Part shown: positions 1,262 to 4,320 of the stretch, in pieces
Numbering within the stretch: the stretch's first letter is position 1
How the letters are laid out: each line of letters starts with the position of its first letter
DNA from: Kangiellaceae bacterium
Lineage (GTDB): Bacteria; Pseudomonadota; Gammaproteobacteria; Enterobacterales; Kangiellaceae
Assembly (NCBI GenBank): GCA_026196875.1
Contig: JAPHTP010000048.1
Span: 1-64,000, forward strand
DNA: 64,000 nucleotides
Direction of reading: 5' to 3'
Program-made: the position numbers and the translations under genes
The notes under the pieces: model-generated
The model's input: the letters and a program-made list of their open reading frames with translations, nothing else
Database searches by the model: none
What the model was told of the DNA's origin: nothing

Positions 1262-2035
1262 TTATCCTTCTTCATGGCGAAGAGTTAATACCTCGTAACC
1301 TTGCTCAGTTACCAGTATTGTATGCTCCCACTGTGCAGACAATTTTTTGTCACGCGTGATAACAGTCCAATTGTCTTTCTTTGTTTTAGTCTTGTAGGTT
1401 CCCTGGTTTATCATCGGCTCTATCGTAAAAGTCATTCCCTCTTTCAAAATTACTCCTGTTCCCGGCTTCCCAAAATGCAACACATTAGGTTCTTCGTGCA
1501 TGTTTCTTCCAATACCATGACCGCAATAATCACGCACTATACTGAATCCTTGTTTTTCTGCCGTTTGTTGGATCGCGTGCCCAACATCCCCAAGTGTTGC
1601 GCCAGGCTTTACTACCTTTATGCCTTGCCACATTGCTTTATGAGTCGTTTCGACAAGCTTTTTGGCGATTGGAGATGCGTCGGGCATCATATACATTTTG
1701 CTTGAATCACTAATAAACCCGTCCTTTTCTAAAGTAATATCGATGTTAACGATGTCGCGAGTTTTTAGTTCTCGATTGTTGGGCATGCCGTGACACACTA
1801 CTTCGTTTAAGGAAGCGTTTAAGGCAAAGGGATAGTTATACTGGCCTTTACTCGCTGGACGAGCATTAAGTTCATTTACGATATATGCTTCCACCCGATC
1901 ATTGATTTGCATGGTGGTAATACCCGGTCGAATAAACGCATCCAGCATATTGAAAACTTGAGCGAGCAAACCACCAGATTGACGCATCAATTCAATTTCG
2001 GCCTTCGACTTAATATTGATTTCAGCCACAGGCAC
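1262..2035 (-). CDS. map: Type I methionine aminopeptidase, paralogue paired with a ParD-like protein
   Basis: The 257-residue protein removes the N-terminal methionine from new proteins. The five metal ligands of the family and the substrate histidine region are all visible: D99 in NIDIT, D110 in ISDSSKM, H173 in CGHGIGRNMHEEP, E206 in FTIEP and E237 in QWEHT, with H82 in VCHGMPN. It should therefore be active. The start is GTG at 2035, and the first 14 bases overlap the end of the ParD-like gene upstream, so the two are probably translationally coupled. The housekeeping map gene normally lies next to rpsB or glnD, so this is probably a second copy. Whether it acts as the partner of the ParD-like protein is inference. 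Confidence 0.93.
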   Translation of the reverse strand: MPVAEINIKSKAEIELMRQSGGLLAQVFNMLDAFIRPGITTMQINDRVEAYIVNELNARPASKGQYNYPFALNASLNEVVCHGMPNNRELKTRDIVNIDITLEKDGFISDSSKMYMMPDASPIAKKLVETTHKAMWQGIKVVKPGATLGDVGHAIQQTAEKQGFSIVRDYCGHGIGRNMHEEPNVLHFGKPGTGVILKEGMTFTIEPMINQGTYKTKTKKDNWTVITRDKKLSAQWEHTILVTEQGYEVLTLRHEEG

Positions 2036-2282
2036 TCGCTCGTAGTTTATTCTTTTCTGATTTATTGGGCTCGATTTTCTCTCTGAAGGCGGAAGCAGCG
2101 ATAACTTCTTCTTGTTGTAGTAAGAGTGTAATTAACTCGTTGAAAGATCTGTCGGGATTGCTCTCAGCGTACATTCCCATCTTAATCCAGAACTCCGCTT
2201 GAGCATTAATAGAGCGTGACATGACATTGCTGGCTTTACGAATTTCTTCGTGTAGTTCTTCTGAGATTTTTAAAATACCCAT
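2022..2282 (-). CDS. ParD-like antitoxin-family protein
   Basis: This 86-residue protein carries the signature of the ParD-like (former DUF3423) family: an N-terminal ISEELHEEIRKAS stretch followed by SRSINAQAEFWIKMGMYAE. These resemble the strand and helices of ribbon-helix-helix DNA-binding antitoxins. It overlaps the start of the aminopeptidase gene by 14 bases, and a perfect 11-bp inverted repeat lies about 20 bases upstream of its ATG, as expected for an autoregulated antitoxin operon. No classical ParE or other toxin gene is next to it. The partner in the operon is methionine aminopeptidase, so its real role is open. Little Shine-Dalgarno sequence is seen. Confidence 0.8.
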   Translation of the reverse strand: MGILKISEELHEEIRKASNVMSRSINAQAEFWIKMGMYAESNPDRSFNELITLLLQQEEVIAASAFREKIEPNKSEKNKLRASACG

Positions 2283-2301
2283 AAAAAGTTCAATAGCTCA
2301 A

Positions 2302-2331
2302 AATATATGATTCATATATAAATCATATATT
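2302..2331. promoter_or_regulatory. Perfect 11-bp inverted repeat, putative operator of the parD-like/map operon
   Basis: AATATATGATT and its exact complement AATCATATATT are separated by eight bases (CATATATA). The element lies 20-49 bases upstream of the ParD-like start codon, where a promoter for that operon should be. Ribbon-helix-helix antitoxins typically bind such palindromes and repress their own operon. Binding by the ParD-like protein is inferred. Confidence 0.6.
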
Positions 2332-2510
2332 CCTTATCTCAGTATTTCAAGGGGTAAAACTAGTATGCAGGCTCTTTAGTATGGAGGTAAGCTTTACACT
2401 TTTTCGAAGCCCAATAAATGATGACCTTGTAAGTATGCCATTTACCCTGGGATAGCTGGTGAGTAATCACCTATGTTCCAACCTCGCTCGCCGATCTGTC
2501 TTATCATGAG

Positions 2511-3029
2511 CTAACATTCCATTATTTTTCGTCGTCTTAACTCGTCAAGCTGCTTCTCTTTGCGGGCATAAGTGCGCGCGCGCATCCTTTCTTTTAGTTC
2601 TTTTTGTAGTTTATTTATTTGTTGAGTTAGCTGATCACACACAGTGTTAGCAGCTGAAGTTTGGCTTTTCTGTCGAGATTGATAAGTTGGTACGACTCGA
2701 TTTGTTTTTTTAAATTTAGTGGTGGAAACCGCTTCAACTGTAATCTTTTCGTTATTCGCTTGCGAACCTTCCGGTGGCTTATCGGAAAAATGAATTTTTC
2801 CGTTTTCATCAGTCCATTTATACATCTGAACTTTTTGGGGTTCCTGGTTATCTAGGGGGTCCTGGTTAGCTTTTTTAACCGGTTGATGAGGCGGATTAAT
2901 TGGGGCAGGCGGATCGGCTTGCTCGCTTTGCACAATTTGTTGGTTTAACTGCAGTTGACTATTCTTAGCAATGTAGACCGCAGCAAAGGCAAGGCCGATA
3001 AATATAAGGGGAATTAAAATCTTAGACAT
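2511..3029 (-). CDS. DUF4124 domain protein, membrane-anchored or secreted
   Basis: The 172-residue protein begins with a hydrophobic segment (residues 4-20), then a Pro- and Gln-rich linker, then the DUF4124 hallmark MYKWTDENGKIHFSDKPP at about residues 69-86. The C-terminal third is Lys/Arg/Gln-rich and likely a coiled coil. Members of this family are periplasmic or envelope proteins of unknown function in Proteobacteria. The gene stands alone, with about 180 bases to the divergent radical SAM gene and 228 bases to the parD-like gene. Confidence 0.82.
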   Translation of the reverse strand: MSKILIPLIFIGLAFAAVYIAKNSQLQLNQQIVQSEQADPPAPINPPHQPVKKANQDPLDNQEPQKVQMYKWTDENGKIHFSDKPPEGSQANNEKITVEAVSTTKFKKTNRVVPTYQSRQKSQTSAANTVCDQLTQQINKLQKELKERMRARTYARKEKQLDELRRRKIMEC

Positions 3030-3210: not shown

Positions 3211-4320
3211 ATGAATCCTCGCAAATTCAAAACTCGTGCAACCCCATCCAACATCTCTCATCGGTTTGATAAGTGTGAATCAATATCAATTAGCCAATTA
3301 GACATAGAAGGTGACTGGTGGTACCAAGACGAATTGGAGGAGCCACAAGATTCAACTGAATTAATAAAGGAAAAATGTAAAAGCATTATTTCGAGCAATC
3401 AATCACCAGACGTCCCCTTCAATAAAAGTATCAACCCATATCGGGGGTGTGAGCATGGCTGTATCTATTGTTACGCACGGCCTTCACATGCTTACTGGGA
3501 CTTATCACCCGGCTATGACTTTGAATCGAAGATAATTTATAAAGTCAATGCAGCTGAGCTGCTTGAAGAAAAATTTAATTCCCGTAACTATCAATGTGAG
3601 CCTGTTTGCATTGGTGCAAACACCGATGGTTATCAACCCGTCGAAAAGCAACTCAAAATTACCCGTCAGATTTTGGAATTATGTTTGGATTATCAACATC
3701 CTGTGTCAATAATCACTAAGAGCCAACTAATTAACCGCGATCTCGACTTGCTGTCAGCTTTGGCGGAAAAGAACCTCACCTCAGTTGCAATTAGTGTAAC
3801 TACCTTAGATAACGCCTTAAAAAGAAGGTTGGAGCCTAGAACCTCTTCACCCAGAGCTCGATTAATGACTATTAGAAATCTGTCGCTTGCTAGTGTTCCG
3901 GTTACAGCACTAGTTGCACCGATAATTCCGGGGTTAAATGATGATGAACTCGAGATTATTTTAAGGCGAGTATCAGAAAATGGCGCATCCACTGCAGCTT
4001 ATATCATGCTGCGCTTACCATTCGAAGTAAGAACGCTATTTGTGGAATGGTTGGAACGCAACTATCCCATGAGAAAACAAAAAGTCCTTAACTATCTTGC
4101 ATCGCTAAGAAATGACAAGCTCAACGATCCAGAGTTCGGTAGCCGCATGTCCGGCCAAGGTGTATTTGCGGAGTTAATCCGACAAAGGTTTGAATTGGCT
4201 TGCAAGAAATACGGTCTTTTAAAAAGAACAGAGGTAAAACTGGAGACACAATTATTTCGGCCAAAGCGCAACGTGCAAAAGCATAAAAAGCTAAACGAGC
4301 AGCAACTGACGCTTTTTTAG
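3211..4320 (+). CDS. PA0069-family radical SAM protein
   Basis: The 369-residue protein holds the iron-sulfur cluster motif C80-EHG-C84-IY-C87, followed by ARPSHAYWDLSPGYDFE, which is typical of the PA0069/SplB-like group of radical SAM enzymes. These enzymes cleave S-adenosylmethionine to start radical chemistry. The substrate of PA0069-type proteins is not known to me, and they are relatives of, not the same as, spore photoproduct lyase. The length is as usual for the family. It is a single gene, divergent from the DUF4124 gene. Confidence 0.9.
   Translation: MNPRKFKTRATPSNISHRFDKCESISISQLDIEGDWWYQDELEEPQDSTELIKEKCKSIISSNQSPDVPFNKSINPYRGCEHGCIYCYARPSHAYWDLSPGYDFESKIIYKVNAAELLEEKFNSRNYQCEPVCIGANTDGYQPVEKQLKITRQILELCLDYQHPVSIITKSQLINRDLDLLSALAEKNLTSVAISVTTLDNALKRRLEPRTSSPRARLMTIRNLSLASVPVTALVAPIIPGLNDDELEIILRRVSENGASTAAYIMLRLPFEVRTLFVEWLERNYPMRKQKVLNYLASLRNDKLNDPEFGSRMSGQGVFAELIRQRFELACKKYGLLKRTEVKLETQLFRPKRNVQKHKKLNEQQLTLF

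What the first reader, a model, noticed from the sequence alone, without database searches (positions are those of the whole stretch)
2022..2331. ParD-like gene coupled to methionine aminopeptidase behind a perfect palindrome
An antitoxin-type DNA-binding gene overlaps, by 14 bases, an intact type I methionine aminopeptidase. The promoter region holds an 11-bp perfect inverted repeat. The layout is that of a type II toxin-antitoxin operon, but the toxin place is held by a full enzyme with all metal ligands. Excess or misregulated N-terminal methionine removal could be the growth-modulating activity.
Basis: partly seen in the sequence, partly recalled or inferred. Interest (0 to 1): 0.62.

Follow-up and report, generated by a model that had tools for sequence, protein, structure and literature searches.

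The report
Self-regulated spare methionine aminopeptidase operon
A small antitoxin-like DNA-binding gene and a second methionine aminopeptidase gene travel together across many proteobacteria behind the same conserved switch sequence, which looks like a self-controlled spare enzyme rather than a poison-and-antidote pair.

Summary
A PF11903 ParD-like gene (2022-2282, minus) overlaps an intact type I methionine aminopeptidase (MetAP) gene (1262-2035), behind a palindrome (2302-2331). The pairing is conserved: 84 of 84 close homologues and 48 of 48 in an even draw of 398 genomes of the phylum. The palindrome belongs to an array of RTATAYGNNNY half-sites repeated every 11 bp, scoring at least 18 of 22 in 99 of 108 upstream regions; 22 control regions score 11-15. 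In its own genome the exact array occurs once, so this looks like a dedicated autorepressor. A toxin role for MetAP is unlikely: catalytic residues are intact, the regulator family partners MetAPs from three places in the tree, and the same MetAP type is the only type I MetAP of two genomes without such a regulator. Most paired MetAPs have a rebuilt methionine pocket (Q62, N70, M177). Best reading: a self-regulated accessory MetAP; toxicity and binding are untested, and the signal is unknown. Bold proposal: the repressor's own Met-Gly start, itself a MetAP substrate, reports MetAP activity.

The parts
2022..2282 (-). ParD-like (PF11903 group A) DNA-binding protein, 86 aa, starts MGILKIS; most likely autorepressor
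   Evidence: group A branch defined
1262..2035 (-). type I methionine aminopeptidase, accessory copy, with rebuilt S1 pocket (S59, Q62, N70, M177, E. coli numbering); start GTG 2035 or GTG 2029
2322..2350 (-). promoter-like site TTGAAA - 17 bp - TATGAT; its -10 hexamer (2327-2322) lies inside the operator. Consensus match only (3 found in the region, 3.1 expected in shuffles)

Best explanation
A two-gene, self-regulated accessory methionine aminopeptidase module. The ParD-like protein is a ribbon-helix-helix-type repressor that binds a tandem array of 11-bp-spaced half-sites over the promoter of its own operon and probably has no other target in this genome. It keeps a second, catalytically complete type I MetAP low or off until needed. 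The MetAP removes N-terminal methionine like the housekeeping enzyme, but in most members its methionine pocket is rebuilt. Shown by computation: pairing, operator, single exact site in the genome, intact catalytic residues, pocket changes. Inferred: DNA binding, repression, and that the enzyme is a spare for times when housekeeping MetAP is short or inhibited. Unknown: the inducing signal.
For: Pairing 84 of 84 and 48 of 48 in an even draw, against 0 of 23 group B PF11903 loci with a MetAP hit; 20 of those 23 have a RelE-like HENFY protein downstream instead. Operator in 99 of 108 upstream regions at 18/22 or better; TATA words are spaced 11 bp 181 times and 22 bp 89 times, next commonest 13 bp (73) and 9 bp (69). 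Exact operator once in the 6.3-Mb genome; 6 matches with up to 3 mismatches (2 of them this array itself) against 8 for a reversed-pattern control. The -10 hexamer of the promoter-like site lies inside the operator. The N-terminal strand MGIVKI and the RSINAQ..W stretch are the best conserved parts of the regulator. No conserved third gene: no family in more than 3 of 78 downstream or 3 of 80 upstream neighbours scanned. A second type I MetAP, taken as housekeeping, is present in 12 of 13 genomes with the pair; the exception is 82% complete. The rebuilt-pocket MetAP can be the only type I MetAP of a genome (2 genomes).
Against: Nothing biochemical is shown. The ribbon-helix-helix fold was not recovered by fold comparison (model pLDDT 76.4, no match under E 0.001) or by sequence against solved structures; it rests on Pfam and on a paper's clan table. 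Nine of 108 upstream regions score under 18 and 4 of 48 in the even draw. Promoter-like matches in the region are no more frequent than in shuffles. One group A regulator (L009) has no MetAP nearby. Operon layout, overlap, plasmid copies and patchy distribution are also what a toxin-antitoxin system would show.
Confidence: 0.65

Rival explanations
1. Type II toxin-antitoxin system in which MetAP is the toxin and the ParD-like protein the antitoxin and autorepressor.
For: Antitoxin-family regulator first, overlapping downstream gene, palindromic operator over the promoter-like site; plasmid copies; 5 of 41 genomes of the relatives draw, the own included, carry it, a patchy spread; the other branch of PF11903 sits with RelE-like proteins in 20 of 23 loci.
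Against: Same MetAP type lives without such a regulator beside it, as only or second type I MetAP, in 4 genomes; paired MetAPs come from three places in the tree while the regulators are alike; divergent layout in Roseobacters; regulator C-terminus poorly conserved; MetAP is a normal, essential enzyme (established knowledge). In the read-through fusion model the ParD half had pLDDT 49-83 by blocks and the MetAP mostly over 94; the output holds no docking measure, so this says nothing on binding.
Confidence: 0.12
2. The regulator senses MetAP activity through its own N-terminus. Its Met1-Gly2 bond is a MetAP substrate, and residue 1 lies at the start of the DNA-reading strand. When MetAP activity falls, newly made regulator keeps Met1, loses its operator, and the spare MetAP is made.
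For: Gly at position 2 in 107 of 108 group A proteins and 48 of 48 in the even draw (9 of those 48 regulators are identical to one of the first set); the same start with MetAPs from all three places in the tree; strand conserved from residue 1. MetAP cuts Met before small residues (established). The register of the strand against MetJ, Arc and CopG is recalled, not tested.
Against: G2 invariance may only reflect DNA reading, as I3 and I6 are just as invariant. L092 has Glu2, not cleavable by the known rule, with MetAP adjacent and operator at 20/22. No data on the N-terminus in the cell.
Confidence: 0.15
3. A specialised MetAP with a changed first-residue pocket, made on demand for unusual N-termini (for example oxidised methionine) or because it lacks the pocket cysteine that electrophiles attack.
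For: Q62, N70 and M177 each in 85 of 93 paired MetAPs (S59 in 82) against Y62, C70 and F or Y177 in 13 of 13 housekeeping copies; a review states that this cysteine is conserved in all type 1 MetAPs and is an inhibitor target (passages). That C70 mutation widens the pocket is recalled from Li et al. 2004 (not held).
Against: The other paired MetAPs keep Y62 (F in one) and C70 (Leu in some), so the change is not needed for the pairing; the rebuilt type is the only type I MetAP of two genomes, so it presumably handles ordinary Met; the neighbours scanned show no recurrent stress function.
Confidence: 0.15

Closest known systems
Housekeeping type I methionine aminopeptidase (map, TIGR00500)
   Same: Family score far over the cut-off, metal ligands and catalytic histidines, Y/F65 and W221 of the pocket
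   Different: Second copy, in an operon with a DNA-binding gene; pocket residues 59, 62, 70 and 177 changed in most members
Type II toxin-antitoxin systems with PF11903 antitoxins (group B with RelE-like proteins; ParD_like-zeta in M. tuberculosis, PMC6504116 passages)
   Same: Regulator family, regulator gene first, small operon
   Different: Group A is a sharply separate branch (86.7 bits or more against 55.4 or less), partner is a full enzyme, operator motif not seen before 22 group B genes, conserved end of the regulator is the start, not the C-terminal half
B. subtilis map / yflG pair of MetAP genes (PMC1266368, passages)
   Same: A second, dispensable, lowly expressed authentic MetAP beside the essential one
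   Different: No dedicated regulator gene is mentioned in the passages read; different bacteria

Membership tests
ParD_like (PF11903) | score over the family's curated cut-off | tested here: met
   74.8 bits, cut-off 23
Ribbon-helix-helix (MetJ/Arc) fold | RHH fold by structure comparison | tested here: inconclusive
   Monomer model pLDDT 76.4, pTM 0.47, helices 8-23, 25-41, 47-69; best Foldseek E 3.1, best Z 3.2. PF11903 reads as listed in clan Met_repress CL0057 in a paper's flattened table (PMC7354421)
Type I methionine aminopeptidase (TIGR00500) | score over the equivalog cut-off | tested here: met
   305.2 bits, cut-off 171.35
Type I methionine aminopeptidase (TIGR00500) | metal ligands D97, D108, H171, E204, E235 and catalytic H79, H178 (residue roles recalled) | tested here: met
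   present in 93 of 93 paired enzymes aligned, E235 in 92 of 93
Type I methionine aminopeptidase (TIGR00500) | pocket cysteine (E. coli Cys70), said in a review to be conserved in all MetAP1 | tested here: not met
   Asn in the window protein and in 85 of 93 paired enzymes; review passages. It is a pocket residue, not a metal ligand, and the curated family score is met, so I keep the enzyme in the family as a variant
Type II toxin-antitoxin system | two-gene operon, regulator first, with operator before it | tested here: met
   divergent in 5 of 84 relatives
Type II toxin-antitoxin system | second gene toxic unless the first is present | not testable with these tools
   Indirect evidence against: same MetAP type found without such a regulator beside it in 4 genomes
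Type II toxin-antitoxin system | second gene belongs to a known toxin family | tested here: not met
   Pfam Peptidase_M24, NCBIfam type I MetAP; no PADLOC match for either protein
Type II toxin-antitoxin system | direct toxin-antitoxin binding through the antitoxin's C-terminal part | tested here: inconclusive
   C-terminal part poorly conserved in group A, conserved in group B; fusion model gave no measure of docking

The most novel reading that the evidence does not exclude
The ParD-like protein is a direct sensor of methionine-excision capacity: a transcription repressor whose own initiator methionine, at the first DNA-reading position of its strand, must be kept or cut to set operator binding. 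It thereby closes a feedback loop over the spare MetAP. It would be a regulator that reads its own N-terminal processing, and would explain why one repressor family partners different MetAP lineages.
Probability: 0.15. Interest if true: 0.8.

Novelty: new variant of a known kind. Interest (0 to 1): 0.5.

Why it matters
N-terminal methionine excision is essential in bacteria and MetAP is a drug target; how its supply is adjusted is an open matter (of what I read, only one paper, on B. subtilis, deals with differential expression; passages). This module is in about one in eight sampled genomes of the phylum (48 of 398) and on plasmids. It gives many bacteria what looks like a regulated second MetAP, mostly without the pocket cysteine some inhibitors use. 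It also shows that 'ParD-like antitoxin' on an annotation can mean a probable plain autorepressor, so toxin-antitoxin surveys that use PF11903 may miscount.

Tried and rejected
MetAP as toxin: weighed as a rival, see there. Wider regulon: the operator pattern in the own genome gave one exact place; other matches are at control level. Operator in front of housekeeping map genes: best scores 12-15 of 22 in 13 regions, background level. Conserved third gene or stress context: not found; I gave those and 80 of the 187 neighbour ORFs listed, leaving out near-duplicates and some others without a fixed rule; the ORFs are mechanical picks. The first plasmid contexts with redox-type neighbours did not hold up as a trend. 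Defence system: no PADLOC match. E. coli: the Klebsiella plasmid copy has no near (megablast) match in the E. coli collection. Empty-site test in two congeneric genomes: only the radical-SAM neighbour was found and no order is shared, so it says nothing; my MCP query there was read in the wrong frame and is void. Phage cargo: four viral-contig loci hold the pair; of ten neighbouring ORFs scanned, one is endolysin-like (L125), one an integrase (L127), one topoisomerase-like (L124) and two match phage families of unknown function (L126); too little to call it phage cargo. Fold comparison of the regulator model: three rows over Z 2, none convincing. Rows dropped before counts: 6 of 99 paired loci (L050, L064, L076, L078, L095, L127) gave no MetAP over 200 aa and are not in the 93; L024 is not among the 22 group B upstream controls. 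Literature: ten searches listed no paper that shows in title or abstract to be on the pairing; I saw listings only, except PMC6504116, PMC7354421, PMC12028322, PMC5989533, PMC1266368 and PMC13129497, of which I saw passages. Listed papers that I did not open may mention it, and the claim covers this open-licence library only.

Full report
WHAT IS THERE. On the minus strand of the window, an 86-aa ORF (2022-2282) is followed and overlapped by a 257-aa ORF (1262-2035). The first is PF11903 ParD_like (74.8 bits); the second is a type I MetAP (TIGR00500, 305.2 bits). The overlap is 14 bp from the first GTG and 8 bp from the second GTG at 2029; 8 bp is what the public annotation gives in three plasmid relatives, 4 bp in three others. 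The palindrome is as described: perfect 11-nt arms at 2302-2312 and 2321-2331, 15-nt arms with one mismatch. The genome (6.28 Mb, 188 contigs) has one PF11903 gene and two full type I MetAPs; the better scoring, presumably housekeeping one lies on another contig.

TWO KINDS OF PF11903. Of the matches in 369 genomes of the class and 41 relatives, 37 loci were fetched and read; weaker matches were not. They fall into two kinds (whose print was cut). Group B (motif ..QIEHWA.IG..AEDNPDL) has a small RelE-like protein with HENFY near its end downstream in 20 of 23 loci. Group A (MGIVKISDELHEE.RKAS..M.RSINAQAEFW..IGMLAE) is followed by MetAP. MetAP hits were found in 13 of 14 group A loci and in 0 of 23 group B loci; the exception, L009, is a lone group A gene in a genome with one type I MetAP. 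Searched with a group A profile, 398 genomes of the phylum give 96 with a match; 48 score 86.7 bits or more and the rest 55.4 or less, so the branches are discrete. All 48 of the first kind have MetAP next door on the same strand. Of those 48 regulators 9 are identical to one of the first set.

HOW GENERAL IS THE PAIRING. All 84 have a MetAP match adjacent. In 79 it is downstream on the same strand, in 5 (four Roseobacter-type genomes and one viral contig) it is divergent. Six of these MetAP matches are partial, some at contig ends. A further divergent case, on a plasmid, is annotated in Sulfitobacter. The pair is also annotated on plasmids of Klebsiella, Psychrobacter, Pantoea, Acinetobacter, Azoarcus and Catenovulum, where the two genes are named 'ParD-like family protein' and 'map'. 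A tblastn of the window regulator against 72,556 plasmid records matched 170; ten were opened and all ten have a MetAP beside it. In the relatives draw of 41 genomes, the own included, 5 have a group A gene, and 2 of 7 in the genus. No third gene is conserved: the commonest Pfam family occurs in 3 of 78 downstream and 3 of 80 upstream neighbours scanned.

THE OPERATOR. Comparing upstream regions shows that the palindrome is part of a tandem array with an 11-bp step: in the window ATATATGATTT ATATATGAATC ATATATT on the operon strand. The consensus RTATAYGNNNYRTATAYGNNNYRTATAY scores on average 20.06 of 22 in 98 upstream regions against 13.6 in 1,960 single-base shuffles, maximum 18. The consensus was read from some of these sequences, so the average is somewhat flattered; the 48-genome draw, 39 of its regulators new, is the fairer test: 44 of 48 reach 18. 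With ten plasmid loci added, 99 of 108 reach 18; nine do not (L009, L053, L063, L066, L069, L078, L116, L120, L203). The 22 group B control regions score 11-15. TATA words are 11 bp apart 181 times and 22 bp apart 89 times; the next commonest distances are 13 (73) and 9 (69). In the own genome the pattern has one exact place, this one; 6 matches with up to 3 mismatches, two of them this array itself, stand against 8 for the reversed control. Housekeeping map genes lack it (12-15 of 22 in 13 regions). The one promoter-like site before the gene on its strand has its -10 hexamer inside the array, but such sites are as frequent as in shuffles. I infer autorepression by cooperative binding of regulator dimers along one face of the DNA, as ribbon-helix-helix repressors do (established for that fold; the fold itself was not confirmed here).

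THE REGULATOR. In 55 group A proteins the N-terminal strand M-G-I-V-K-I is nearly invariant (1.00, 1.00, 1.00, 0.93, 0.89, 1.00), as are R23-N26, Q28, W32, G36 and P43, and the part after residue 60 is free; in 23 group B proteins the start varies and the NPDLP part of the C-terminal half is nearly invariant. The regulator of this module thus seems kept mainly for reading DNA. Length is 68 aa in 61 of 108. The window protein has an unusual 86 aa with a charged tail.

THE ENZYME. Paired MetAPs keep the metal ligands, but 85 of 93 have Q62, N70 and M177 (each counted alone) where 13 of 13 housekeeping copies have Y62, C70 and F or Y177; 82 of 93 have S59. Six of 99 paired loci gave no MetAP over 200 aa and were left out. 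These positions lie in the pocket for the methionine side chain (E. coli numbering and pocket membership recalled; a review passage gives Cys70/Cys105 as pocket cysteine conserved in all MetAP1). Y/F65, H79 and W221 are kept. A maximum-likelihood tree of 106 MetAPs places 85 paired ones in one branch (support 100/100) and 8 on the housekeeping side in two separate places (5 Roseobacter-type on a long branch; L008, L037, L126); the root is not known and no test of monophyly was run. The regulators of the Roseobacter type are 72-82% identical over 60 residues to those of other bacteria whose MetAP is of the rebuilt kind (top four of each). So alike regulators are combined with different MetAPs; the direction of the swap was not tested, and the regulator tree is weakly resolved.

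IS IT A TOXIN? Among the 30 best MetAP loci from 369 genomes, 12 have the rebuilt pocket; 8 have a group A gene and 4 do not within about 1.5 kb. Two of these 4 genomes have no other type I MetAP (G016, 97% complete; G166, 94%), two have a usual one besides. In one search G016 has no PF11903 match; those of G166 (group B, L031), G073 and G248 lie on other contigs, and the last two were not read. An enzyme that can be the only type I MetAP and can sit in a genome without the regulator is unlikely to be a toxin. This is indirect; toxicity needs an experiment.

MECHANISM. I commit to a dedicated autorepressor with a spare MetAP (0.65). For the inducing signal I propose, at low probability, that the regulator's own Met-Gly start is the sensor: position 2 is Gly in 107 of 108 and 48 of 48, a start that MetAP cuts, and by the recalled register of MetJ, Arc and CopG residue 1 stands where those proteins touch bases. 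One counter-example, L092 with Glu2, keeps MetAP and operator, and invariance of the whole strand explains Gly2 without any sensing.

NOVELTY. None of ten full-text searches of the open-licence library listed a paper on the pairing. In the passages read of the TASmania paper, zeta toxins are the partners named for ParD_like clusters. Both genes are separately named in public annotation, so the parts are known and the module appears undescribed: a new variant of a known kind, namely a regulated accessory MetAP.

Noticed in passing
L166 (G016) and L167 (G166): Two small genomes (1.7 Mb) whose only type I MetAP has the rebuilt pocket (Q62, N70, M177) and no ParD-like gene beside it.
   Followed up: partly
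L009 1501-1713: Lone group A ParD-like gene with a weak operator (16/22) and no MetAP nearby, in a genome with a single type I MetAP; perhaps a remnant.
   Followed up: partly
L206 2032-6180 (Sulfitobacter plasmid): Divergent map/ParD-like pair followed by a methyltransferase gene noted as rRNA methylation, rpsU (ribosomal protein S21) and 5-formyltetrahydrofolate cyclo-ligase: translation-related genes on a plasmid.
   Followed up: no
L203 2541-5979 (Acinetobacter seifertii plasmid): The pair lies near a carbapenemase gene and insertion sequences on a plasmid typed as mobilizable, so it can travel with resistance; its operator there scores only 14/22.
   Followed up: no
L127 1545-4584 (viral contig): A phage-type integrase lies about 1.4 kb from the pair, which is cut by the contig end; the pair may flank an attachment site.
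   Followed up: partly
window 3211-4320: PA0069-family radical SAM protein gene (function unknown), beside a DUF4124 gene at 2511-3029.
   Followed up: no
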